Positions 29,379 to 41,410 of a stretch of DNA of 43,444 nucleotides are shown in pieces. Made by a program: the position numbers and the translations under genes. How positions within the stretch are numbered: position 1 is the stretch's first letter; each line of letters starts with the position of its first letter. The notes under the pieces are model-generated. The model was not told the DNA's origin, made no database searches, and worked only from the letters and a program-made list of their open reading frames with translations. The stretch spans positions 1-43,444 of the forward strand of contig JACPZZ010000010.1 in assembly GCA_016195275.1 (NCBI GenBank). The letters are read 5' to 3'. Origin of the DNA: Candidatus Aenigmatarchaeota archaeon (GTDB lineage Archaea > Aenigmatarchaeota > Aenigmatarchaeia > JACPZZ01).

Positions 29379-29879
29379 ATGAGAACGCCAATATGCTCTG
29401 TTTGCCTGCAGTCCGACATACTTTGCAAAAGCTGCGCCAGAAACATCGAGGCCGGAAAAATCAGCGCCTTGGGAGCGGGCATAATAAAAAATTTATACGA
29501 GTTGTCCAGGAAAGTAAAATCCGTAGACAGTGTTAACATAGAAAAGGTACTTGATTTCGACAGCCTTGTGGTTATTATCTGCCAGAAATCCGACGTACCG
29601 AACCTGGTGGGCAGGGGAGGAAGAATAACCGGCGAGCTGAGGAAAAAATTCGGAAAACAGATAAAGGTCATAGGCAGGGACCAGTACAAGCAAATGATAG
29701 CGGATCTTGTGTTTCCCGCGAGGATAGAGGGGATAGGAAAGCTCTATTCAGGGGGGGTCGAAAGCCTGAAAATAAACGTGCAAAAAAACCAATTGATGAA
29801 ACTTCCGGCGAAAAGGGAGGATTTGCTGAAGGCGGCCGCGGAAATTTCAGGTATGAAAGTCGAATTTGCGAATCAATAG
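29379..29879 (+). CDS. Archaeal NusA-like KH-domain protein with zinc-binding motif
   Basis: About 166 residues. The N-terminus MRTPICSVCLQSDILCKSCARN has a C-x2-C ... C-x2-C zinc motif. Two KH-type RNA-binding modules follow, with VGRGGRITGELRKKFGKQIKV as the GxxG loop. This matches the short archaeal NusA-like KH proteins thought to bind RNA during transcription or translation. ATG at 29379 is preferred over an in-frame GTG at 29370 because the family begins near this point. The 3' end overlaps the convergent coiled-coil gene by 7 bases. Confidence 0.85.
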   Translation: MRTPICSVCLQSDILCKSCARNIEAGKISALGAGIIKNLYELSRKVKSVDSVNIEKVLDFDSLVVIICQKSDVPNLVGRGGRITGELRKKFGKQIKVIGRDQYKQMIADLVFPARIEGIGKLYSGGVESLKINVQKNQLMKLPAKREDLLKAAAEISGMKVEFANQ

Positions 29880-30268
29880 GGTTTCCTATAATGGCTTTCC
29901 AGCATGTCGATCTTTTCACCCAACACCCTTAACTGCGCCTTGACAGCTTCTATCTCTGCAAGTATGAGGTCTATCTTCGGACCTGATTCCGCAGGCCTCT
30001 GCGCAGGCTGGTTAGCCGCAGGGTAGGTTGGTACGGCCGGTGGAAAAGGATAATTTTGCCGCGCTGCCGGAATCTGCGGTTCTCGCAGGGCTTCTATAGG
30101 GTTTTTCGGCGGCATGCTTTCATCGTAGCGGGACTCGTAGGATTTCAGGACGTCTTCTGACGGCAGCCGTATCTGCGGGGGTTCAATGCCTTGTTTCACA
30201 TCAGCCAGACCGGATTTTTTCGGGGCGAATTTCCTTACCGCGCCAATGACAGTGCCAAAAAAACTCAT
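29873..30268 (-). CDS. Uncharacterised protein with Pro-rich linker and C-terminal coiled coil
   Basis: 131 residues; family not recognised. Residues 1-20 include a short hydrophobic and basic start (MSFFGTVIGAVRKFAPKKSG). Residues about 25-95 are proline-rich and probably disordered. The C-terminal 30 residues (KIDLILAEIEAVKAQLRVLG and after) form a heptad-like coiled coil. ATG at 30268 was chosen over a TTG one codon upstream. The TnpB element begins about 15 bases before the start, so the promoter may lie in element DNA. The two genes beyond the element (31519, 32019) point the same way and may have been its upstream partners before insertion. Function unknown. Confidence 0.7.
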   Translation of the reverse strand: MSFFGTVIGAVRKFAPKKSGLADVKQGIEPPQIRLPSEDVLKSYESRYDESMPPKNPIEALREPQIPAARQNYPFPPAVPTYPAANQPAQRPAESGPKIDLILAEIEAVKAQLRVLGEKIDMLESHYRKPY

Positions 30269-30284
30269 CAAACCGCCCCAAGGA

Positions 30285-31516
30285 CACCCACACCATTCAT
30301 TGGTGGGAGGAATTGAGCATATCGGAATACTGTAACCGAAATGTTTAAACCTTTACGTACACGATTATAACTATGTTGGGCAGGGTAACAGTCAATGTTC
30401 GTGTCCCATCCGATGATGCTGTTCTGAAAACCATAAAAATCTACAATAGAGGGCTGCAACATTGTATTGATGTCGCTTGGAAGAAGCGGATAAGGAACAA
30501 CATCAAGTTGCACCCTTTCGTCTATAAAGAGATCAGGGGTTTCGGTCTGCAAAGCCAGCTCGCTGTTGCCTGCATCAAACAGGCTTGCGGAATGGTCAAG
30601 AGGGCCAAGAGCAAACCCGCAATCAACAGCTTTTCTATGCGATATAATTCTCCGAGAAGTTTCTCTTTTAAGCATGGAATCCTTGGTCTTTCTACAATTG
30701 AGGGCCGAAAGAAATTTAATATCACGCTTCCCGAATACGCCAAGAAATACATCGCTTGGGAAATTGATGAAAGCGTTCTTTGGTCGGACAGAAAAAACAG
30801 GATTTTCTTCGGCTTGTGCCTTTCCAAAGATATTGACATCCCGATACGCTCTGCTCAACACAGGCAAGTTCTGGGTGTCGATGTCGGAATAAAACATCTT
30901 GCCGTCACATCCGATGGCAAATTCTACGGAACCGTCATCCCTAAGATGCGCAGGCATCAGGAACATATTGCTTCCCTGCAGAGCAAAGGAACGAAGTCTG
31001 CCAGAAGGCACCTCAAAAAGGTCTCTGGCAGGTGGAAACGTTTTATGCGGTGGAAGAACCATAACATTAGCAGGGAAATCGTAAACAGTTTGGGAGAAGG
31101 CAGTATAGTCGCATTGGAAGGAATAACAAACATTCGTTCCAACAAGGGCAGGAAATTCAATAGGCAATTGCATTCGTGGGCTTTCAGGCAACTGCAAAGC
31201 TATATTGAATACAAAGCTATTCAAAGAGGCTGCTTGGTTGCCTATATCAATCCACGATATACAAGTCAAACCTGCCGAATCTGCAATGAAATCGGGACAA
31301 GAAACAAAGGATTTTTCCTTTGCAACTCCTGCGGTTATTCCTGCAACGCCGACCTTAACGCCTCTTTCAACATCAAAAACAGGGTCAAGCCACTGGCTAT
31401 GGCCTTCGGGCTGAATGTAAACCAGCCTATCGTAGCAAGCGGTGGATTTCTTAATGTTAAACATTTTGAATCTCCTGATCTTAGTTACAATGCCCACAGG
31501 TTTTAGTTGTGGGTAA
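30285..31516 (+). mobile_element. IS200/IS605-type element carrying tnpB only
   Basis: The left end is a hairpin (CCCAC.CCA/TGGTGGG, 30287-30307) followed by GGGAGGAATTGAGCATATC. The right end is a hairpin with CCCACA/TGTGGG arms (31493-31513). The single gene is tnpB; there is no tnpA, so transposition would need an enzyme in trans. The element separates minus-strand genes at 29873 and 31519. The left end matches those at 5197 and 32575 and thereby defines the element family. Exact cleavage points are not determined. Confidence 0.75.
30373..31506 (+). CDS. tnpB: TnpB, IS200/IS605-family RNA-guided nuclease (complete)
   Basis: 377 residues, apparently full length. RuvC-like motifs: VLGVDVGIKHLAV (Asp), IVALEGI (Glu), and CNADLNASFNI (Asp). 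The zinc ribbon CRICNE ... CNSCG lies before the last motif. The N-terminal domain (MLGRVTVNVRVPSDDAVLKT and after) is the usual helical recognition part. The stop codon (31504-31506) lies in the loop of the right-end hairpin, as in the copy at the window start. TTATAACT lies directly before the ATG. The guide RNA would be expected from the 3' end of the gene and the right end. It differs greatly from the first copy, so the two are separate lineages. Confidence 0.93.
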   Translation: MLGRVTVNVRVPSDDAVLKTIKIYNRGLQHCIDVAWKKRIRNNIKLHPFVYKEIRGFGLQSQLAVACIKQACGMVKRAKSKPAINSFSMRYNSPRSFSFKHGILGLSTIEGRKKFNITLPEYAKKYIAWEIDESVLWSDRKNRIFFGLCLSKDIDIPIRSAQHRQVLGVDVGIKHLAVTSDGKFYGTVIPKMRRHQEHIASLQSKGTKSARRHLKKVSGRWKRFMRWKNHNISREIVNSLGEGSIVALEGITNIRSNKGRKFNRQLHSWAFRQLQSYIEYKAIQRGCLVAYINPRYTSQTCRICNEIGTRNKGFFLCNSCGYSCNADLNASFNIKNRVKPLAMAFGLNVNQPIVASGGFLNVKHFESPDLSYNAHRF

Positions 31517-31518
31517 GT

Positions 31519-32022
31519 TTACCGCGAAACCTTTTCCGGAAGACTGAACGCACTCCTAAGTTCGTTAAGCGTCATGTTCATCCTTTCTTCGTTGCGCTTA
31601 AGCATTGCGATCCTGCGCGCCTTATAAAAATAATTCAAATAGACAAGCAAAACCAGCTTCACAAACGGGTTGCTGTATTCGAAATCGGTTTGTAGTTGGG
31701 CGTACATCATCATGCGTACCGTGCCTTGTTTTGTCTCAGCGTGCTGCTTTCCCTGGTAGCGAATGTTTATCAGCAGGTTTGTAAACCCGTCCTCCTCCCT
31801 CCTGAAATCGATTTCGGTGAAAAAGGTCCTGACAACGTCTGTTACATCCCAGCGTATATCTTTTTGCGTCCAGCGTGTACCGCTGATTTCGAAATACTGG
31901 CGTATTAGAGAGTTTGCCTGGTTTACCATTTTCCACGGATCCGGGCCTGTGTAAACCATGTCAATTTCCCTATGAGGTGCGAACAAATCGTCTGCGATAC
32001 GCCATCTTGGCATCCAAATCAT
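31519..32022 (-). CDS. Uncharacterised protein, paralogous to its upstream neighbour
   Basis: 167 residues, family not recognised. It shares a pattern with the protein encoded just upstream (32019-32546): a YTGPDPWKM/YRGPKPERF-type segment, a conserved Trp, a region ending LQTDFEY (neighbour: LRTEYPQ), then a FYKARRIAML-type (neighbour FYKTQRLKYL) amphipathic helix near the C-terminus. The start ATG overlaps the neighbour's stop (ATGA), so both are translated together. The stop lies 6 bases beyond the right hairpin of the TnpB element; the insertion may have trimmed the C-terminus. Possibly a heteromeric pair; function unknown. Confidence 0.72.
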   Translation of the reverse strand: MIWMPRWRIADDLFAPHREIDMVYTGPDPWKMVNQANSLIRQYFEISGTRWTQKDIRWDVTDVVRTFFTEIDFRREEDGFTNLLINIRYQGKQHAETKQGTVRMMMYAQLQTDFEYSNPFVKLVLLVYLNYFYKARRIAMLKRNEERMNMTLNELRSAFSLPEKVSR

Positions 32023-32546
32023 CCTTTGCCAGGTTCAACTACCCTGAATTCTTCGAAAGCCTTTTTGAGCTCTATCTCCATGTTCCTTATCAGGGCACGG
32101 CCTTCGTGGAGATATTTCAACCGCTGCGTTTTGTAGAATATAGTGTGCCACAGCATCCTTATCATTTCGTAAAATATGCTCCTCTGCCACAAAGTGTCCT
32201 GAGGGTATTCTGTTCTCAATGTACCGAACAAGCGCACGCGCGCCCCGCCTTCGCCTTTTGTGCTTTGGCCGGCTAATTCGACAGACATGCGGAAATACGT
32301 GAACCTGTCCAGCGGCTTTGAGATTTCCCAGAAGACATCGAATTTCTGCGTGTCGCCCACGTTATCCCATTTGAACGTACGCTCCTGCACCTGGCCGCGG
32401 TCGACAGCATAAACGAGCGGTATAAGCTCTGACAGGCGTGTGTAGAACCGCTCCGGCTTCGGACCGCGGTAGTTCATTACGAGGTAGTACGGGTCAAATC
32501 GTATGAACGGATCTTCGATAACAAGCTTTGTCCTTGCAATTACCAT
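32019..32546 (-). CDS. Uncharacterised protein, first gene of the paralogous pair
   Basis: 175 residues, family not recognised. It has no clear signal peptide; a hydrophobic helix (WQRSIFYEMIRMLWHTIFYK) near residues 120-140 could attach it to a membrane. The two-gene unit reads toward the TnpB element. The start codon is about 25 bases from the left end of a small tnpB-less element (32570-32837), whose insertion probably changed the promoter. The conserved pattern with the downstream protein suggests duplication. Large unknown genes beyond the element (34298, 36310) are on the opposite strand; a link is possible but not shown. Confidence 0.72.
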   Translation of the reverse strand: MVIARTKLVIEDPFIRFDPYYLVMNYRGPKPERFYTRLSELIPLVYAVDRGQVQERTFKWDNVGDTQKFDVFWEISKPLDRFTYFRMSVELAGQSTKGEGGARVRLFGTLRTEYPQDTLWQRSIFYEMIRMLWHTIFYKTQRLKYLHEGRALIRNMEIELKKAFEEFRVVEPGKG

Positions 32547-32837: not shown

Positions 32838-32938
32838 AGCTGACTTATTATTTAATCTTCTGCCTTAAAATCTAATTGAAATCGTCCGCTTTTCGCTTAA
32901 TAATTACATGCAAGAATAATACAAAAGCAGACGATTTT

Positions 32939-33826
32939 ATGCCTTCGGATTCGGCTATGGTTAAACTCTGGGCCTGGTCGGTTGCGGCTGTCGTGCTGCT
33001 GCTTTTTTTACTGGTTAACGGGCCGCGGGGCATTTTGGACGCCTTTTCAACGCTTAGCATTGCCACCGGGCTGTTCATCATACTGGCTCTTTTTGTTATG
33101 GCCGAAGGCAAAGAGGCGGTGGGCACAGGGTTAGCCGTCGCTTCGGTGTTGATCGTAGGCGGCTTCCTCATAACCTCGACAACAGGCTTCACGGGCATAG
33201 CGACCTTTATGGTCGTTTTCAGCGCAGTGCTTATACTTGTTTATGGATTCACAGAGAAGAATAACCCGGACAAGAACATCCTGCTGCTTACGGTTGCGGC
33301 AGCCGTGGTAATATTCTTTGGGGGCGCGGCTCTTCCGCCGGAACTGAGCGTAACAGCTACGGGTTTGATGCTGATTATCACAGCTTTCGGCGTGATGACA
33401 TTCCTGTTTTCCAAGTTTTCGGATAAGGAAAGCGGCTTGAAATGGGCGTTTTTTGTGGCAACCCTTTTTGTTGCAGGCGGCTTGCTTTTCGTTTTCGCTG
33501 GATTTTTGCCGGCGTTCCTGTTTTCCCTGGCCGTACTGTTCGCTTTCAGCGCAGCAAAAATATTTCCCGGCTCCACTTCAGAGGGTAGTATAATATCCTG
33601 GACCGGAACCTCGGCTGCTGTGCTGGCAGTGTTTTTCCTTTCCACGGTGCAGGGGCTTTTCCCAGGCCTTCTAAGGGGATTTGCTCTGGTAATGCTGGCC
33701 GCAGGCCTGATAACAATAAAGTTTTTCCTAAGGATAAGCGAAAGGGAGATTCCTGGCATAACCAGTTCAGGCCTTCTTCTGGGAACCATTTTAACGCTGG
33801 CCGGGCTATATTTAATATTGTTTTAG
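32939..33826 (+). CDS. Multi-pass membrane protein of unknown function
   Basis: About 295 residues, almost entirely hydrophobic, with roughly ten membrane helices in pairs joined by short polar turns (VNGPRG, EKNNPDKN, SDKESGLK, SEREIPG). No motif I recognise. ATG at 32939 was chosen because a TATA-like TTAATAATTA lies about 36 bases upstream; an earlier in-frame ATG at 32876 precedes that promoter, and an ATG at 32957 is also possible. The next gene, a 60-residue membrane protein, starts 9 bases after the stop, so the two are co-transcribed. Transporter or structural role cannot be decided. Confidence 0.7.
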   Translation: MPSDSAMVKLWAWSVAAVVLLLFLLVNGPRGILDAFSTLSIATGLFIILALFVMAEGKEAVGTGLAVASVLIVGGFLITSTTGFTGIATFMVVFSAVLILVYGFTEKNNPDKNILLLTVAAAVVIFFGGAALPPELSVTATGLMLIITAFGVMTFLFSKFSDKESGLKWAFFVATLFVAGGLLFVFAGFLPAFLFSLAVLFAFSAAKIFPGSTSEGSIISWTGTSAAVLAVFFLSTVQGLFPGLLRGFALVMLAAGLITIKFFLRISEREIPGITSSGLLLGTILTLAGLYLILF

Positions 33827-33835
33827 TGGTGCGAA

Positions 33836-34018
33836 ATGGTCGAATTCACAAATTTTGACAGGATTTTCCTGAAAGTGCTTGGAACAATGCTTTTTGCGCT
33901 CGGCGCTTTCATGGCCGCGTATTTTCCAGCCCGCGACTATGAACCAAAGTACAGGTTTATCGGGGTTTTGGTCCCGGGGACCATGATAATCGTAGGGCTT
34001 TACCTCTGGAGCGTCTAA
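33836..34018 (+). CDS. Small two-helix membrane protein (60 residues)
   Basis: Two hydrophobic helices (about 11-29 and 40-58) joined by a charged turn (FPARDYEPKYRF). Starts at ATG after GTGGTG, 9 bases beyond the stop of the large membrane protein. A second two-helix protein of 54 residues lies 110 bp downstream and shares the order helix, YFP, acidic turn, helix, so the two look related. Function unknown. Confidence 0.62.
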   Translation: MVEFTNFDRIFLKVLGTMLFALGAFMAAYFPARDYEPKYRFIGVLVPGTMIIVGLYLWSV

Positions 34019-34128: not shown

Positions 34129-34293
34129 ATGGTTTTTGAGAAAGTTGCGGGCCTGTTGCTGGTAGGCGCGGCCCTGTTCCTGATAGTTTATTTTCCGGAA
34201 ACCGAGGACTCGGAAACTTCAGGGTTCACGGCGCTGGGCATATTTATCGGGCTGTTCCTGCTTGTGATGGGAATAAGGCTGTTGCTGGGATGA
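34129..34293 (+). CDS. Small two-helix membrane protein (54 residues)
   Basis: The frame starts MVFEKVAGLLLVGAALFLIV and ends in a second helix (FTALGIFIGLFLLVMGIRLL), with an acidic turn (YFPETEDSETSG) between. It resembles the 60-residue protein upstream. TATATAATTATTA at 34105-34117 is a strong TATA box at leaderless spacing from the ATG, and no ribosome binding site is present. The stop is 4 bases before the 632-residue protein gene, so this tiny gene leads that transcript. Function unknown. Confidence 0.65.
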   Translation: MVFEKVAGLLLVGAALFLIVYFPETEDSETSGFTALGIFIGLFLLVMGIRLLLG

Positions 34294-34297
34294 GTGA

Positions 34298-36196
34298 ATG
34301 GTAGATTTTTTGCTAAACAGGATGAACGGCGAATTCCTTTTCACATACCCGCCGGACCAGAACGGCATACAGGACTCTTTTGGATTTTCCGGCAATTATC
34401 CGGGCATACTCATAAACCCGACAGGGCCGCTTGGTTTTATCTCGCTCCTTTATATTAAAACCATGCTACAGCTGCCCAAGTGGGGCTATGGTGTTTACAA
34501 ACACATAGACAGTTTTGAAATAAATCCCACGTACCGTGAGTATTACGCTGCCACTCTTGCGACTAAACAGGACCTTGAGGGAAAGATTAAAGCCGGACTG
34601 GAATCCGCATCACGGGCGATAAGCGATTACGAATTGTTAGCCCACGACCACAGGAAATACGAGGATTATCTTACGTACCTAAACAATTACGGGCAGGGTA
34701 TGAAAGATCTGGAAAAGGCTAGGAAGGAAAAGAACGAAGACGGCGCAAAAAAAGCAGAACGGATGATTCTCGAAGCTAACACATCGTTGAAAGCCGTTTT
34801 CATAGACCAAGTCGATGTCCATACGGGCGAAGGCGTTGCGCTTAAACTGATAGTCAGCCGCTGGCCGAACATTATTGTCGACTTTATGAAACTTGAGGAC
34901 GACATGACAACGTCCGAGGACATTGTGAAAAGGCTGGTTCCGAAAATAACAACCGCCGAGGCTGTTGTTTTAGCGACCAAAAATAAATTGTTTACCCGAT
35001 GGAAAGAGCTTTTCAGGGGGGCTGTGACGCAAAGATACCTTAACATACTTAGTTTGATGAATGCCCGCAGGAAAAGCATAGAACAATACAAAAAATGGCT
35101 AAGGCCTTACATCATACAGCACGAACTGCTGCAAGAAAGCCAGGAAAAGGGCGGATCGGCTTTAGGACCAGCTTCCGGATCTTCTGCAGGCCAAGGCGGA
35201 AAAAGTTTAACACACAGGCTTAAGGCCGGCGCGCACGCCATGTCTTTCCATGATATCGCAGCTTATGCATGGAAGCCATTTGCGCCCGGCGACATGTACC
35301 GCGCGAGCGTGGAGAGAAAAGAAATAGATGTGAAGCTGGAATTTTTGGGTAAAGACACGAGCGACAGGGGGAGGGCTGAAGATACGGCTATACTCCAAAG
35401 GTTCGGGTTGAGTTACGATAATGTAAAAGGCGGAAAATTCACGACGAATTTCTGGCTGAACCCTTATGATATTGTTGCAAAGGTTGGATTGTACGGCGAA
35501 AAGGCGGGCAGCAAAAGCGGGCGCATAGCTGACGGAGGAAAATGCCTTGTAGACGAATATCCGTGGATAAAACCAAAGGAGATAGAGGCGCAGGCGATAA
35601 GGCTGATCAAGGATTCCGAGGGCCAGCAAAGAAATTATTACAACACCTTGTTGCTGCACCCGGACTATATGTATTATATTCTTTGGGATCTGATATTCTC
35701 GCGCGCAATAATCAGCATCCCGCAGGGCACGGTAGACGACGGTTTCGTGTTTATCAAAATAGCGTTCATAAGCCAGAACGTTTTGCTTGTGAAACTTATC
35801 GAGCGCTGGGCCTCGGAGCAGAGATTCGACCGCAATGTGGAAGAAGTTTTAGGTTTAACAGCCATAGACGAAAAAGAAGACATAGACGCGTCGATAACAG
35901 GCAACATGGAGGTTGAGGCTAAAAAGAAATTTTCCGCCCTGTACGAAAAGGCGGACGGCAAGGATAAAGGGAAAGAAGAAAAAGGCTTCGACTTTATCAA
36001 ATCCATCGAGCACAGATTAAACGAGCTTAGCAACGGGCTGCAAATTTTCGGCATGAATTTCCAGCTTTTCAAGAAGGGGCCTTATGAAACGAATTTAAGA
36101 GACCGCATAACGCGCCAATTCTCCAAGGCCTTTGCGGACACGTACCGCGACGAGTTTATCAGCTGGTTCGAGGACGCGGCAAAAATCGGAGACTAA
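34298..36196 (+). CDS. Uncharacterised 632-residue protein
   Basis: I do not recognise the family. The N-terminal 60 residues contain FLFTYPPDQNGIQDSFGFSG and a PTGPLGFISLLYIKTM hydrophobic stretch. Residues about 85-270 are highly charged and helical (probable coiled coils, e.g. KDLEKARKEKNEDGAKKAE). A Gly/Ser-rich linker lies near 285-300. The C-terminal half is mixed, with WLNPYDIVAKVGLYGE and a helical RVLDLIFSRAI-like region. No signal peptide. It is the first large gene of a same-strand block with the TIM-barrel protein (36310) and two nucleotidyltransferases, and follows a 54-residue membrane protein by 4 bases. The order suggests that these proteins work together; the job is unknown. 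Confidence 0.75.
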   Translation: MVDFLLNRMNGEFLFTYPPDQNGIQDSFGFSGNYPGILINPTGPLGFISLLYIKTMLQLPKWGYGVYKHIDSFEINPTYREYYAATLATKQDLEGKIKAGLESASRAISDYELLAHDHRKYEDYLTYLNNYGQGMKDLEKARKEKNEDGAKKAERMILEANTSLKAVFIDQVDVHTGEGVALKLIVSRWPNIIVDFMKLEDDMTTSEDIVKRLVPKITTAEAVVLATKNKLFTRWKELFRGAVTQRYLNILSLMNARRKSIEQYKKWLRPYIIQHELLQESQEKGGSALGPASGSSAGQGGKSLTHRLKAGAHAMSFHDIAAYAWKPFAPGDMYRASVERKEIDVKLEFLGKDTSDRGRAEDTAILQRFGLSYDNVKGGKFTTNFWLNPYDIVAKVGLYGEKAGSKSGRIADGGKCLVDEYPWIKPKEIEAQAIRLIKDSEGQQRNYYNTLLLHPDYMYYILWDLIFSRAIISIPQGTVDDGFVFIKIAFISQNVLLVKLIERWASEQRFDRNVEEVLGLTAIDEKEDIDASITGNMEVEAKKKFSALYEKADGKDKGKEEKGFDFIKSIEHRLNELSNGLQIFGMNFQLFKKGPYETNLRDRITRQFSKAFADTYRDEFISWFEDAAKIGD

Positions 36197-36202
36197 ATAA
36201 GC

Positions 36203-36281
36203 CTTTCTTTTTTAAAAAAAGAAAGCCTTAACAGCGAAAATCAACGGATTTTCGCGTGTAGGAAACTAAAAGTTTCCTACA
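36203..36281. promoter_or_regulatory. Three consecutive hairpins between the 632- and 667-residue protein genes
   Basis: In the 113-bp gap, three inverted repeats follow one another: CTTTCTTTTTT/AAAAAAGAAAG (36203-36225), GCGAAAATC/GATTTTCGC (36234-36255) and TGTAGGAAACT/AGTTTCCTACA (36257-36281). The last two are perfect with 3-4 base loops. GGTGA at 36299-36303 then serves the next gene. They could set mRNA stability or processing, or partial termination. Confidence 0.6.
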
Positions 36282-36309
36282 GGGAAAGAAAAAATCGTGG
36301 TGAAATAAA

Positions 36310-38313
36310 ATGGTTTACACAATAGGCGTGTCAAGCGGCTGGTGGGGTATAGCCAAAACGCCGGATTTACTGGGTCTGGGGTTAAAGGCGATGAGCGCAG
36401 CCACTTATGGGGTGACTTTTGTACAATTAGACATAGAATCGCCGTCAGAATTCATGGAGCCTCTGCTTGAACAGCAATTAACTATTGCGCGCGAAGATTT
36501 GGGATTAAATTACGGCATACACGGCGAGTTTGACTTAAAATTAGAACATGCCGTAAAAGACATCTGGGACATTTTTCACGAGCGTTTGGTAGACCACATA
36601 CGCGGCGCTGTGAGAACGAAAACGTCGTATATGCATTTCCACGCCTCTTCCGAGCCGCCGCCGACAATCGGATCTTCAATGTTAGGTTACAGGTTTCAAA
36701 GATTAGTCGCGCCAGACGGCAATACATTGTACAGGATATTGAACTATTTTACAGCCAGCGGGGAAGGCGAAAACAGGAAATTCACATCGAAAGAATACCC
36801 GCATCTTACACACGAACAAATCGTACTGGTCAGAAGAATACTGCTCGAAAACTTCGTAGTGGGTGGCGGGCCGGAAGCGACGGATCCGCGGCACCGGGAA
36901 TTCCAGGACAGGGCAAACGATTTTTTGGCGCCGATCGCGGGCATAGCCATAGGCGAAGTCCGCGAAAGCATAAGCAAGATAATGTGGCAGGATATGAAAA
37001 TAGACCTTGAAAAAGATCTGCGCGCGCTCGGCCCGACGATACAGCTGCCCGGCGAGCCCCAGCCTATAAATACCGAGGACTTTATCAGGCAATCCACCGA
37101 ACGGATAAACAGGGGAACACTTCCAATAGATAACTATGTTACGATCATAATCAACCTTCTTAACAGGCACGGAGAACAGCTGGATCAGTATTTCATCCGG
37201 ATGAGGAACAGGGTCAGGGAAAAGCTGCACGATTACGCCGAAGGGTTTATTAAAGAGGAAATGATCAACAAATACGTTCCGTTTTTCGGCTATGATGAGA
37301 GACTGGCGTATGAAATTGTCGGCAGACTTCTGCAAGGCTCCACGCAATGGAAAATCATATGCCACACCGATTATGTGCGCGCCCAACTAACAGCCCAGTT
37401 CAAGGCCGAAGGAAAGGCTTTCCGCGGCGATGAGGACATTACCGTTGATAATTTGCTGCGAAGCCATGACCGGCGCGTGCAGGCGTTAGTATCCACAGTT
37501 GTGGCCATGGAATATATCAACGGCCATTTCTCCGCATCAATGCAATACAGAAATCCTGATACGGGAAAATTTACGATTGAAAAAAACAAGAACGGCAAAG
37601 ACCTGAATCTTAAGGAATACATAAAGGAAAACAAGTTCGTAGTGACGTTTGAGACGCCCCAAATCACGGAAAAACAGGAAGGCTTGCTGAGAATCGTGCG
37701 TTCTGAGCACATTTACCACCTTGTCAAAAAAATACGCGAGTTTAACGGCGACGCAAATTACCTTTCGGACCTGGTTTTCATTTCACTGGATTTCGAGCAC
37801 ATGCTGACACACAACTTGAACATCGACCTTGAGATCACGGAATTACCGCAGGATGGCGGCGCGTTGTGCAAAGTCATTCATGTGGGGCAGCCGAAACCGA
37901 TACATCCTGCGCACGCACCCATATACGTGGGCTCGGAGGCACAGGAGTTGATTTATCGTTACCTTTTCGAATTGAGGAAAAAAGGATTCAAGGACGGGTG
38001 GATTATCTTTGAAAGGGGAGGCGGGCAGAGCCCGTTAGAGTGGATGCGGTCCAGCGTTTATGCAATGAGACTGATTGTCGAATACCTTGAAAAAGAAATG
38101 GATCCTGACAAACTGCCGCCGGAATTTTATGGCATTTCACCCGAGTCAGAGTTTTCAGAACAGCGTCAATTGGTGGTCATACAGAACCATTTTTTTGCGC
38201 CGCTTGCCGGAACGCTAGCGGTCCCGGAAGAGGAGCATACATTCCTCGGGCGCACAGCCACGGAAAGGCCTGGTTTGGCTCCTGAAAAATGGAAGAAGGA
38301 AGAACTCCGTTAG
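36310..38313 (+). CDS. TIM-barrel (AP endonuclease 2/sugar isomerase-like) protein with a large insertion
   Basis: 667 residues. The first 120 look like strands 1-3 of an AP_endonuc_2-type barrel, with possible metal ligands His 71 and Glu 73 (IHGEFD) and His 111 (FHASSEPP). The barrel seems to resume near residue 440: Glu 448 (TFETP), Asp 494, Glu 496 and His 497 (SLDFEH), His 524 (HVGQP) and Glu 568 (FERGG). About 300 helical residues lie between the halves. Endonuclease IV and sugar isomerases share this ligand pattern but lack such an insertion. ATG follows GGTGA. Whether it acts on DNA, RNA or sugars is unknown. Neighbouring nucleotidyltransferases hint at nucleic-acid or RNA work. Confidence 0.65.
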   Translation: MVYTIGVSSGWWGIAKTPDLLGLGLKAMSAATYGVTFVQLDIESPSEFMEPLLEQQLTIAREDLGLNYGIHGEFDLKLEHAVKDIWDIFHERLVDHIRGAVRTKTSYMHFHASSEPPPTIGSSMLGYRFQRLVAPDGNTLYRILNYFTASGEGENRKFTSKEYPHLTHEQIVLVRRILLENFVVGGGPEATDPRHREFQDRANDFLAPIAGIAIGEVRESISKIMWQDMKIDLEKDLRALGPTIQLPGEPQPINTEDFIRQSTERINRGTLPIDNYVTIIINLLNRHGEQLDQYFIRMRNRVREKLHDYAEGFIKEEMINKYVPFFGYDERLAYEIVGRLLQGSTQWKIICHTDYVRAQLTAQFKAEGKAFRGDEDITVDNLLRSHDRRVQALVSTVVAMEYINGHFSASMQYRNPDTGKFTIEKNKNGKDLNLKEYIKENKFVVTFETPQITEKQEGLLRIVRSEHIYHLVKKIREFNGDANYLSDLVFISLDFEHMLTHNLNIDLEITELPQDGGALCKVIHVGQPKPIHPAHAPIYVGSEAQELIYRYLFELRKKGFKDGWIIFERGGGQSPLEWMRSSVYAMRLIVEYLEKEMDPDKLPPEFYGISPESEFSEQRQLVVIQNHFFAPLAGTLAVPEEEHTFLGRTATERPGLAPEKWKKEELR

Positions 38314-38360
38314 AAGTTTATATTATAGCATGTCTTTTCTTTAATGGCTGAGGTTGTCAG

Positions 38361-39152
38361 ATGGAAGCAGAAAAAAAGGCTAATGAGGGTTACGAGCCGA
38401 AGGCGCGCGTGTCCAAGGCGATGAAATTCGCAAAGATCGTGCGCGACCAGTTTCCCGATTACGTAAAAGGCATACTGCTTTTCGGTTCTGCGGCCAAGGG
38501 CGCAAAAAAGGCCGGCGATGTTGATGTGCTGATTATCCTTGACGACACAGACCCGAAGATATTTCCCGAACAGATAGACCGCGTGGACGAAAACATAAGG
38601 CTGATAGCGGATAGGATCGGGGATTTGCACCCTCAAGTCCATACGATAACGGATTTCTGGGACTGGATACGGCACGGAGACCCGATACTTTTTAATTTTT
38701 TGCGTTACGGCTATCCGATTTACGATGCCGGATTCCTAAAGCCGACACAGCGGCTGTTAGAAGCAGGAAGGATAACGCCGTCCCAGGAAGCGATAAGGTT
38801 ATACTCAAAGATAGCTCCGAAGAACGTGGAAAAGGCTGAAAACTATATCCGGGCCGCTATTATCAGGTATTATGATGCCATGACCGCGTCTGCGCAGGCC
38901 GTATCAATGTTAGCGTACAAACACCAACCGGAGCCAAGAGAGATACCTTCGGTTTTGGAAAGGATGGTTAAAGAAAATAAATTAAACCACAGATACGTGG
39001 ATTATTACATACACGCTTTCCAGCTGTGGAAGAAAATAGACCACAAAGAAATCAAGAACATACCCGGTGACGTGCTGGAGAAGCAAAGAACAGAGGCCAA
39101 CGAATTCGTGGACGTTATGAACACGTTCCTCAAAGGCTATACAGAGGAGTAA
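38361..39152 (+). CDS. Nucleotidyltransferase fused to a HEPN-like helical domain
   Basis: 263 residues. The N-terminal MNT-type nucleotidyltransferase has LLFGSAAKGAKKAGDVDVLIIL (G42-S43; Asp 53 and Asp 55); the Ser before the first Asp is Gly. The third acidic residue is probably in TITDFWDW. The C-terminal 130 residues are helical (NYIRAAIIRYYDAMTASAQA), resembling HEPN domains, but I see no clear RxxxxH RNase motif. Separate MNT and HEPN proteins form toxin-antitoxin pairs that adenylylate the partner; a fused form could regulate itself. The next gene is a paralog starting 2 bases after the stop. Confidence 0.78.
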   Translation: MEAEKKANEGYEPKARVSKAMKFAKIVRDQFPDYVKGILLFGSAAKGAKKAGDVDVLIILDDTDPKIFPEQIDRVDENIRLIADRIGDLHPQVHTITDFWDWIRHGDPILFNFLRYGYPIYDAGFLKPTQRLLEAGRITPSQEAIRLYSKIAPKNVEKAENYIRAAIIRYYDAMTASAQAVSMLAYKHQPEPREIPSVLERMVKENKLNHRYVDYYIHAFQLWKKIDHKEIKNIPGDVLEKQRTEANEFVDVMNTFLKGYTEE

Positions 39153-39154
39153 CC

Positions 39155-40285
39155 ATGGAACTTAAAAGAATTCCCAAAAGGAAATCGATAAAGGACATAG
39201 CGCGCAAACGCAGGGCGGACATGATCAAAGCGCTTACGCAAAAAATACTGGACAAGTTCGGCAAATACGTGAAGTGCGTGGTTTTGGTCGGGTCGGTTGC
39301 GAGAGATGAGTTCCGAAGCAATTCCGATATAGACATGTTTTTAGTCATCGACGACACAAAGATGAATTTCACGCCCGAAGAAAAGAGAAGGATAGACGTC
39401 GAGATTGACATAGCCGCCCAGGAGATAAACAAGGATATTATTGTGCAGCCGGCATACACGCTGACGGAATTTTGGGATATGGTGAGAACATCACACCCGT
39501 TAATTTACAATTTCATACGCGACGGAATACCGGTTTTCGATACAGGTTTTTTCATGCCGATAAAACGTCTTCTTGAGCTCGGCCGCATACCTGCGACGAA
39601 AGAGGCTGCGGACGCGTTACTTGACAAAGCGCCAAAAAGGCTACGAAGAATTACAGAGGTAAAGTTATACATGGTGGCAGAAGACTGTTATTATGCCATG
39701 CTTGACATGACGCAAGCGGTTTTGATGTCATTGGGCTTTTCACCCCCGTCGCCGGGACGGGCCGCCGAAGAATTTCGCAAGCACCTTGTTGACACAAAAA
39801 TCATAGAGGGAAAATACGCAGACTGGTTAGACGGAATAAACCAATTCCGCAAAGACGTCGAACATAAAAAAATCAACGACATCAAAGGTTCTGATTTAGA
39901 CGAGTGGATAAAAAAAGCCGACGAATTTGTCAACAGGATGCTGCAAATTGCCGATGCGCTTGAGTTAAAGAAAAAAGAGCGGATCGTCGAAAAAAGCTAC
40001 GATGTCATGACAAAGGCGATAGTGGCGGCGTTGAAATCCGTGAACAAATTACCGGGCGACCAGGCGGAGATACCGAACGCGTTCAGGAAATACCTGGTGG
40101 AAGAAGGCTTGGTCGAAAAACATTACGCTGACATATTCAGCCATCTTGAAGACATGAGGAAAAAGGTGCGTGAAGGCAAGATAACCGAATTAACGGACAA
40201 GGAAATATATTCACACAGGGAGTATGTAAGGAAATTTATACACCACGTAGGAAAAATAGTGAAGGATGAGGAGCCGGCGCAATGA
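39155..40285 (+). CDS. Nucleotidyltransferase with two HEPN-like helical domains
   Basis: 376 residues. The nucleotidyltransferase core is VVLVGSVARDEFRSNSDIDMFLVID (G46-S47, S57, Asp 58, Asp 60), closer to consensus than its neighbour, with TLTEFWDM as third motif. Residues about 150-265 match the HEPN-like part of the neighbour (LYMVAEDCYYAMLDMTQAVL). Residues about 275-370 look like a second copy (SYDVMTKAIVAALKSVNK), ending REYVRKFIHHVGKIV. GGAG precedes the ATG, 2 bases after the previous stop, so both are translated together. Probably a regulatory or toxin-antitoxin-like enzyme pair; substrate unknown. Confidence 0.76.
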   Translation: MELKRIPKRKSIKDIARKRRADMIKALTQKILDKFGKYVKCVVLVGSVARDEFRSNSDIDMFLVIDDTKMNFTPEEKRRIDVEIDIAAQEINKDIIVQPAYTLTEFWDMVRTSHPLIYNFIRDGIPVFDTGFFMPIKRLLELGRIPATKEAADALLDKAPKRLRRITEVKLYMVAEDCYYAMLDMTQAVLMSLGFSPPSPGRAAEEFRKHLVDTKIIEGKYADWLDGINQFRKDVEHKKINDIKGSDLDEWIKKADEFVNRMLQIADALELKKKERIVEKSYDVMTKAIVAALKSVNKLPGDQAEIPNAFRKYLVEEGLVEKHYADIFSHLEDMRKKVREGKITELTDKEIYSHREYVRKFIHHVGKIVKDEEPAQ

Positions 40286-40312: not shown

Positions 40313-41410
40313 ATGAAAATTTCAAATGAAGGGTCAGTTTCGCTTCATTTACCGGACAGCAGGAAAGAAGTTTTTTACAACCCTGAAATGGAGCTTTCAA
40401 GGGACATATCTGTAGCATTTTTACAGGTTGTAGGCAACAGAAATTTTGTCGTGTGCGATTTATTGTCAGGTGGGGGCGCACGGGCGATCAGGTATGCAAA
40501 AGAGACCAGTGCCAAAAAAGTTTTTGCAAATGATGCCAACGAATATGCGGCCAGGTATGTAAAAGAAAACGCAGCCCTAAACGAGGCAGAGAACAGGGTT
40601 TCTGTGTCATGTATGGGCGCCAATGATTTTCTTTCCAGGCATAAAAATCTCTTCGATTTTATAGACATAGACCCGTTCGGTTCGCCGGTTTATTTCATGG
40701 AAGAACTGGCCAAATCGTCGAAACCGGATTCTTATCTGGCGCTTACAGCCACGGATTGCGGCGCATTGGCCGGCGTATTCCCAAAGACGTGCGCAGAAAG
40801 ATACGGCATCAAACTTGATCGAACGGAATGCTACAAGGAGGTTGGCGTGCGCAACCTTGTCGGAATGGCGGCAGCGCATTTTAAGCCGCACAGCCTGTTC
40901 GTGCGGCCCTTGTTGTCACATGCAACCGAACATTATTTCAGGGTATTCCTTAAGATAAGCCGTATTGGAAAGTTAAATACAAAATATTTTTACCATTGCG
41001 GAAAATGCGGGTATTGCACGTTCAAAAGCGTGGCTAAATGCAAATACTGCAAATCCACGGCATCCAAACTGGGTCCTGTGTGGGCATCCAGCCTTTACGA
41101 CAAGGCTGTGTGCCTTGAAATCGCAGAAAAACTTAAGCAGCGGTTTAGAAAATCCGCTGAGGCGAGAAAACTGGTATTTACTATACTGGACGAATGCGAC
41201 CAGCCGTTTTACTACAATATACACAAAATATCCGAGCGGCTATCTGCGAATACGCCGGGAATGAAAAATATAATCCGCGAACTAAAAAAACGCGGACACG
41301 AAGCTACAAGGACACAGTTTTCCAACACTTCGATAAAAACGGATGCCGGGTTAGACAATATCAAAGAAATCATAAAGACTTTCGGTGGACAGCAACCACG
41401 GAAGCGATGA
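40313..41410 (+). CDS. trm1: tRNA (guanine26-N2)-dimethyltransferase
   Basis: 365 residues. FYNPEMELSRD (21-31) and DLLSGGGARAIRYA (49-62, SAM-binding; the usual AGTG is SGGG) are Trm1 motifs. IDIDPFG (117-123) is the catalytic DPFG, and TATDCGALAG follows. The C-terminal domain has a zinc ribbon CGKCGYC ... CKYC. Trm1 methylates G26 of tRNA twice with SAM, stabilising the fold. ATG at 40313. The 3' end overlaps the convergent pilin-like gene by 41 bases. SAM would come from the window's own MetK. Confidence 0.93.
   Translation: MKISNEGSVSLHLPDSRKEVFYNPEMELSRDISVAFLQVVGNRNFVVCDLLSGGGARAIRYAKETSAKKVFANDANEYAARYVKENAALNEAENRVSVSCMGANDFLSRHKNLFDFIDIDPFGSPVYFMEELAKSSKPDSYLALTATDCGALAGVFPKTCAERYGIKLDRTECYKEVGVRNLVGMAAAHFKPHSLFVRPLLSHATEHYFRVFLKISRIGKLNTKYFYHCGKCGYCTFKSVAKCKYCKSTASKLGPVWASSLYDKAVCLEIAEKLKQRFRKSAEARKLVFTILDECDQPFYYNIHKISERLSANTPGMKNIIRELKKRGHEATRTQFSNTSIKTDAGLDNIKEIIKTFGGQQPRKR

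What the first reader, a model, noticed from the sequence alone, without database searches (positions are those of the whole stretch)
34298..40285. Unrecognised gene block: 632-residue protein, interrupted TIM barrel and two tandem NTase-HEPN proteins
Four large genes on one strand run head to tail from 34298 to 40285, with a 54-residue membrane protein in front. None is a clear member of a characterised system. A metal-ligand TIM barrel split by about 300 residues, next to MNT-type nucleotidyltransferases, suggests a nucleic-acid- or nucleotide-modifying system.
Basis: inference. Interest (0 to 1): 0.6.

Follow-up and report, generated by a model that had tools for sequence, protein, structure and literature searches.

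The report
Conserved enzyme module of tiny archaea
A block of genes of unknown function in a tiny uncultured archaeon turns out to be present in almost every member of its phylum and, in the same order, in many other small archaea; it encodes a nucleotide-adding enzyme, a metal enzyme built like a DNA-repair nuclease but split by a large insert, and partner proteins with no known relatives.

Summary
The four genes exist as described. The window is Aenigmatarchaeota. P1 (632 aa) has no sequence or fold match. P2 (667 aa) is an endonuclease IV/xylose-isomerase-type TIM barrel interrupted by 336 residues between strands 4 and 5. P3 and P4 are MNT nucleotidyltransferases with helical (HEPN-like) domains. 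This is a conserved module, not four stray genes. Each family is in 144-150 of 156 phylum genomes and in 38 of 39 good ones; the 39th lacks them all. P1-P2-P4 order holds in 52 of 53 named loci. P1 is also in 55 of 317 archaeal genomes outside the class, and P1-P2-P4 keeps order and strand in at least 10 of those families. Two active sites survive divergence to 13% identity: eight endonuclease-IV-type metal ligands in P2 and GS-X10-DXD in P4. The HEPN RNase motif does not. Neighbours lean towards RNA biology (Trm1, NFACT-R, CRM/YhbY). Best guess: a housekeeping complex that adds and removes nucleotides at RNA ends. The substrate is not shown; a writer/eraser or small-molecule role remains possible.

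The parts
34298..36196 (+). P1: 632-aa protein of a lineage-wide family without known fold; long alpha-helical hairpin (residues 80-277) plus beta-rich part
   Evidence: No Pfam/NCBIfam match above cut-off. AF2 model pLDDT 74, pTM 0.61; no PDB or viral fold match at E<0.001. Found in 145/156 phylum genomes and 55/317 other archaeal genomes.
36310..38313 (+). P2: endonuclease IV/xylose-isomerase superfamily TIM barrel with insert; ligands H71, H111, E448, D494, H497, H524, H535, E568
   Evidence: PF01261 in 19/32 members; PDB profile hits MJ1311 and endonuclease IV; AF2/Foldseek; ligand conservation.
36643..37638 (+). Insert in P2 (about residues 112-443), mostly helical, between b4 and b5; holds invariant (within the phylum) H406
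   Evidence: Secondary structure of the AF2 model. H111-E448 stretch 183-504 residues long in relatives.
38361..39152 (+). P3: MNT nucleotidyltransferase + helical domain; paralog of P4, present in some families; HEPN Arg replaced by Trp
   Evidence: PF01909 1.7e-8; motif alignment.
39155..40285 (+). P4: MNT nucleotidyltransferase (GS-X10-DXD at 46-60), helical domain with R232-X4-H237, and C-terminal HEPN-like domain
   Evidence: PF01909, HEPN PF05168 at 250-365; kanamycin nucleotidyltransferase by profile; found in 150/156 phylum genomes (includes paralogs).
34129..34293 (+). m54: small two-helix membrane protein, usually directly before P1
   Evidence: Family found in 39 of 46 named P1 loci with enough upstream sequence.
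32019..32546 (-). g31: 175-aa alpha/beta protein without known fold, divergent from P1
   Evidence: Family in 144/156 phylum genomes; 92-95% identity within the genus, the slowest-evolving gene of the locus.
31519..32022 (-). g30: 167-aa paralog of g31 in tandem with it
40313..41410 (+). Trm1, tRNA (guanine-N2)-dimethyltransferase, 27 bp after P4; recurrent neighbour, probably not a core part
   Evidence: TIGR00308 3e-84; next to P4 or the g31 pair in several unrelated families, inside and outside the phylum.

Best explanation
The block is the core of a conserved housekeeping module (g30/g31, m54, P1, P2, P4, optionally P3) of small-genome archaea. SHOWN: conserved order and strand, near-universal presence in the phylum, joint absence in one good genome, slow evolution, and two conserved catalytic sites. 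INFERRED: the proteins form a complex scaffolded by the coiled-coil protein P1. In it P4 transfers nucleotides to an RNA end, and P2, keeping the endonuclease-IV metal centre but with its substrate cleft remodelled by a large insert, hydrolyses phosphodiesters at such ends (3' trimming or repair). Together they would maintain or quality-control tRNA or another structured RNA. I give about 0.95 to 'conserved functional module' and about 0.4 to the RNA-end mechanism.
For: Module: P1, P2, P4 and g31 in 145, 145, 150 and 144 of 156 phylum genomes and each in 38 of 39 genomes at least 90% complete; the exception, G008 (94% complete), lacks all four families. Order P1-P2-P4 on one strand in 52 of 53 named loci, median P1-P2 gap 66 bp. 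Same order and strand in at least 10 families outside the class. Slow evolution inside the genus: g31 92-95%, P3/P4 90-92%, P2 78-85% against Trm1 60%, NAD kinase 65%, KH protein 63%. P2 active site: H71, H111, E448, D494, H497, H524, H535, E568 are kept in the phylum and in other archaea; the ninth ligand of endonuclease IV (Asp of DxH) is replaced in the window but present in 8 of 12 members of the most distant P2 clade. CpEndoIV ligands His75, His115, Glu153, Asp187, His190, His229, Asp237, His239, Glu269 show the same H-H spacing of 40 and the D-X2-H and D-X-H patterns; 3'-5' exonuclease and 3'-diesterase activities are known in that family (PMC13113976). P4: G46/S47/D58/D60 kept in 49-50 of 50 sequences. 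RNA context: Trm1 beside the module in several unrelated families; NFACT-R protein in 8 and a CRM/YhbY protein in 5 of the distant loci.
Against: No substrate is shown. Kanamycin-type nucleotidyltransferases often modify small molecules, and Foldseek ranks sugar 3-epimerases above endonuclease IV for P2, although with low aligned quality. Neighbours could reflect a shared ancient locus: the region also carries ribosomal-protein, ABCE1 and TFB-type genes (my reading of the sequences). Two components have no known fold, and m54 is a membrane protein, which does not suggest RNA work. Whether these genomes have their own CCA-adding enzyme was not tested.
Confidence: 0.4

Rival explanations
1. Biosynthesis or modification of a small molecule, cofactor or envelope sugar: P4 is a kanamycin-type nucleotidyltransferase acting on a hydroxyl, and P2 acts on a sugar as other xylose-isomerase-like barrels do.
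For: P4 profile matches kanamycin nucleotidyltransferases best; P2 fold matches D-tagatose 3-epimerases; a small membrane protein precedes P1.
Against: P2 keeps the endonuclease-IV ligands H71, H111, H497 and H535 that simple epimerases do not need (background knowledge; ligands). Near-universal retention in reduced genomes and the RNA neighbours favour information processing.
Confidence: 0.25
2. Writer/eraser pair for protein nucleotidylation: P4 (and P3) attach NMP to P1, g30/g31 or another protein, and P2 removes it.
For: MNT proteins with GS-X10-DXD are known protein adenylyltransferases (PMC7641770); P2 has a phosphodiesterase-like site.
Against: No conserved acceptor tyrosine of the RX4HXY type is present. 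P1 has few invariant residues, mostly non-acceptors.
Confidence: 0.15
3. A toxin-antitoxin or anti-phage system of the HEPN-MNT kind.
For: Domain content; weak PADLOC matches of P3/P4 to candidate defence nucleotidyltransferases.
Against: Near-universal, syntenic and slow-evolving; no relatives in viral contigs; HEPN RNase motif not conserved.
Confidence: 0.05
4. Chance or purely historical linkage of unrelated core genes.
For: P4 is detached from P1-P2 in some families (f6, f10), and in L167 the order is rearranged.
Against: The same three genes are adjacent in the same order in distant archaeal families whose other neighbours differ; all are absent together in G008.
Confidence: 0.05

Closest known systems
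Endonuclease IV (Nfo, TIGR00587) / PF01261 superfamily, incl. MJ1311
   Same: TIM barrel; metal ligands at the ends of b3, b4, b5, b6, b7 and b8 with the same local patterns (H, H, E, DxxH, H, xxH, E)
   Different: 183-504 residues between the b4 and b5 ligands; ninth ligand changed in the phylum; not recovered by TIGR00587; sits in a fixed operon with P1 and P4
Kanamycin-type and MntA nucleotidyltransferases (PF01909)
   Same: GS-X10-DXD active site; helical domain behind the catalytic domain
   Different: Two helical domains in P4; tandem paralog P3; housekeeping distribution; partner genes P1 and P2
Type VII HEPN/MNT toxin-antitoxin (HepT/MntA)
   Same: MNT and HEPN-like domains together
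   Different: Domains fused in one protein; no RX4HXY; RNase motif not conserved; near-universal, not patchy
Aenigmarchaeota-specific module 128 of Castelle et al. 2021 (PMC8204110)
   Same: That paper reports a module of lineage-specific families with no functional prediction
   Different: Whether these families are part of it could not be checked; here the core is shown to reach beyond the phylum and to have recognisable active sites

Membership tests
Endonuclease IV (Nfo) | TIM-barrel fold of PF01261 | tested here: met
   19/32 members match PF01261, best 2.2e-16; model and Foldseek.
Endonuclease IV (Nfo) | Nine-residue trinuclear metal site | tested here: inconclusive
   Eight of nine kept in the window protein; the Asp of DxH is replaced (P533). 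8 of 12 distant P2 proteins have Asp there.
Endonuclease IV (Nfo) | Uninterrupted ~280-aa protein scoring above the TIGR00587 cut-off | tested here: not met
   P2 is not among the listed matches; only 6 of 60 genomes have a protein over the cut-off, elsewhere in the genome.
Endonuclease IV (Nfo) | AP-endonuclease or 3'-diesterase activity | not testable with these tools
   Needs purified protein.
MNT nucleotidyltransferase (PF01909) | GS-X10-DXD active site and NTP_transf_2 domain | tested here: met
   P4 G46, S47, D58, D60; PF01909 above cut-off for P3 and P4; nearly invariant in relatives. P3 has X9.
Type VII HEPN/MNT toxin-antitoxin | RX4HXY in the HEPN toxin (class I) | tested here: not met
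   P4 has R232-X4-H237 followed by K-K-I; P3 and other lineages lack the Arg. Definition from PMC7641770.
Type VII HEPN/MNT toxin-antitoxin | Separate toxin and antitoxin genes, patchy distribution | tested here: not met
   Fused domains; near-universal in the phylum.
Sugar epimerase/isomerase of PF01261 | Single-metal site and isomerase activity | tested here: inconclusive
   Extra endonuclease-IV-type ligands present; activity not testable.
HEPN RNase | Conserved RX4-6H motif | tested here: not met
   R in 22 of 50, H in 40 of 50 sequences of the P3/P4 family.

The most novel reading that the evidence does not exclude
A previously undescribed essential enzyme complex shared by much of the DPANN-like archaeal radiation, in which a nucleotidyltransferase and an endonuclease-IV-type metalloenzyme with a large insert act as a build-and-trim pair on RNA ends, held together by a new coiled-coil scaffold family.
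Probability: 0.3. Interest if true: 0.85.

Novelty: categorically new. Interest (0 to 1): 0.62.

Why it matters
Lineage-defining proteins of these reduced, mostly uncultured archaea are dominated by families without function (PMC8204110, PMC9258230). Here one such set is tied into a single conserved module with two recognisable active sites and a defined gene order, present from Aenigmatarchaeota to other archaeal phyla, so its function becomes directly testable. Retention in genomes of 0.5-1 Mb suggests an indispensable process.

Tried and rejected
Homology of P1 and g31: they share a rough strand-helix-strand pattern, but hhalign gave no support with or without the coiled coil removed. The whole-family P2 alignment was too divergent for the search for related loci; a P4 alignment was used instead. 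PF21017, PF17222 and similar weak Pfam hits of P1 were treated as chance. Viral origin: P4, P1 and g31 have no relatives in viral contigs (the last two find close relatives only), and P1 has no viral fold match. Structured RNA or tRNA genes in the window: none. Distance-matrix comparison of the gene families was too saturated to be informative. P2 as the replacement for a lost canonical endonuclease IV: not supported, because most genomes also carry a separate ~275-aa PF01261 protein, and P2 coexists with true Nfo in f3 and f15.
Full report
OBSERVATION. Pfam finds nothing above its cut-off in P1 or the window's P2, and NTP_transf_2 in P3 and P4, with HEPN in the C-terminal part of P4. Named relatives place the window in Aenigmatarchaeota.

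CONSERVATION IN THE PHYLUM. In 156 genomes of the phylum (all of one class), P1 is found in 145, P2 in 145, P4 in 150 (which includes paralogs) and the g31 family in 144. Among 39 genomes at least 90% complete, each is in 38. The one exception is G008 (94% complete), which lacks all four families, as expected of parts that work together. Order was read from loci of different species: 52 of 53 named loci with all three genes have P1-P2-P4 on one strand, with a median P1-P2 gap of 66 bp. These loci were fetched through P4, so loci where P4 has moved away (families f6, f10 and some of f16) are not in that count. Upstream lie, in 40 of 46 loci, the divergent g30/g31 pair and, in 39 of 46, the small membrane protein m54.

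RATE OF EVOLUTION. Within the genus, g31 is 92-95% identical, P3 and P4 90-92%, g30 78-87%, P2 78-85% and P1 74-79%, while the neighbours Trm1 (60%), NAD kinase (63-67%), the KH protein (62-63%) and m316 (63-66%) are lower; the neighbouring GTPase is 68-83%. This marks g30/g31, P2, P3 and P4 as strongly constrained and sets them apart from most of their surroundings.

BEYOND THE PHYLUM. A P1 profile finds P1 in genomes outside the class ('same domain'); a profile widened with these finds it in 55 of 317 archaeal genomes outside the class, nearly all under 2.3 Mb. The widened profile contains some of the sequences it finds; the first scan did not. In 21 of 40 outgroup loci a P2-type barrel lies beside P1, and in 17 a P4-type nucleotidyltransferase. 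P1-P2-P4 in order on one strand is seen in f48, f49, f61, f76, f97, f120, f121, f125, f135 and f137.

P2. The AF2 model (pLDDT 81.5) has strands b1-b4 at residues 3-111, a mostly helical insert, then b5-b8 at 444-567. PF01261 matches 19 of 32 members, and the PDB profile search finds MJ1311 and endonuclease IV. At the strand ends stand H71, H111, E448, D494, H497, H524, H535 and E568. They are kept almost without exception in the phylum and in other archaea, down to 13% identity. Endonuclease IV of C. pneumoniae uses His75, His115, Glu153, Asp187, His190, His229, Asp237, His239 and Glu269 (PMC13113976), with the same 40-residue spacing of the first two and the same D-X2-H. The ninth ligand, Asp of D-X-H, is changed in the phylum but present in 8 of 12 of the most distant P2 proteins, which also carry an insert at the same place. 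So P2 works like an endonuclease-IV-type metalloenzyme, but it is not a member of the Nfo family by its curated model. True Nfo is over the cut-off in only 6 of 60 genomes, and most genomes have another, ordinary PF01261-type protein.

P3 AND P4. P4 has the exact GS-X10-DXD motif of MNT adenylyltransferases (definition: PMC7641770); G46, S47, D58, D60, D66 and D67 are kept in 49-50 of 50 P3/P4 proteins from all lineages. The HEPN RNase motif R232-X4-H237 is kept in most Aenigmatarchaeal P4 proteins, but Arg is lost in all P3 proteins and in the other lineages. The nucleotidyltransferase is therefore the conserved activity, and the helical domain is more likely structural or substrate-binding. 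P3 is a paralog present in some families; a second diverged pair lies elsewhere in the genome (G000:C21, locus L086).

P1 AND g30/g31. P1 has a long helical hairpin and a beta part and no match in PDB or viral folds. g30/g31 have no Pfam or significant PDB match. No homology between P1 and g31 could be shown.

CONTEXT. Trm1 lies beside the module in several families of the phylum, on either side, and in genomes outside it (L178, L180, L188). In the most distant lineages an NFACT-R protein (8 loci) and a CRM/YhbY protein (5 loci) lie next to P1 (Pfam was run on one representative of each). The phylum loci also carry general housekeeping genes such as TFB, ABCE1 and aIF5A (named by my reading of the sequences), so the RNA link is suggestive only.

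EXPLANATION. Shown: a conserved, slow-evolving, jointly lost module with two conserved catalytic sites. Inferred: a complex on P1 in which P4 adds nucleotides and P2 removes or cleans ends, most likely on RNA. Rivals: small-molecule modification, protein nucleotidylation and its removal, and, much less likely, toxin-antitoxin or defence. No paper describing the cluster was found in the searches of open-access papers. Castelle et al. (PMC8204110) report an Aenigmarchaeota module without any functional prediction; whether it contains these families could not be checked.

VERDICT. The block is real, widespread and unexplained. As a system it fits no known kind that I could find; its enzymes are new variants of known superfamilies. 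The main open point is the substrate.

Noticed in passing
30373-31506 (+): IS605-type TnpB gene (PF07282 4e-20, OrfB_IS605) inserted between the g30/g31 pair and the gene at 29873-30271; the antisense ORF 30268-31497 is probably its shadow.
   Followed up: partly
L086:4754-6582 (G000:C21): Second, diverged pair of MNT-HEPN genes in the same genome, in reverse order (long then short); the short one has lost the second Asp of DXD. Conserved in the genus and in several other families, next to unknown genes and a TP_methylase.
   Followed up: partly
L054:12369-13163 and L090:12721-13509: In family f19 an extra uninterrupted PF01261 barrel gene (~265 aa) follows P4 directly on the same strand.
   Followed up: partly
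G008 (family f5): A 94%-complete genome of the class lacks all four module families; it could reveal what replaces the module.
   Followed up: no
C-terminus of P2 (window 38280-38310): The last residues of P2 are conserved across the phylum (W-K-K-E-E-x-R at the very end), and a different but also conserved end (W-x-x-V-P-x-E) is found in distant-clade proteins, suggesting the tail has a binding role.
   Followed up: no
32876-33826 and 33836-34018 (+): A 316-aa multi-helix membrane protein and a 60-aa membrane protein lie between g31 and m54 in this genus; the 60-aa protein looks related to m54.
   Followed up: partly
L071, L072, L079, L083 and relatives (families f3, f13, f15): P1 is shortened to about 390-430 residues and g31 seems to be single and diverged in these families.
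   Followed up: no
L187:7586-8610: NFACT-R and CRM/YhbY genes directly before P1 in distant lineages, hinting at a link with ribosome-associated RNA biology.
   Followed up: partly
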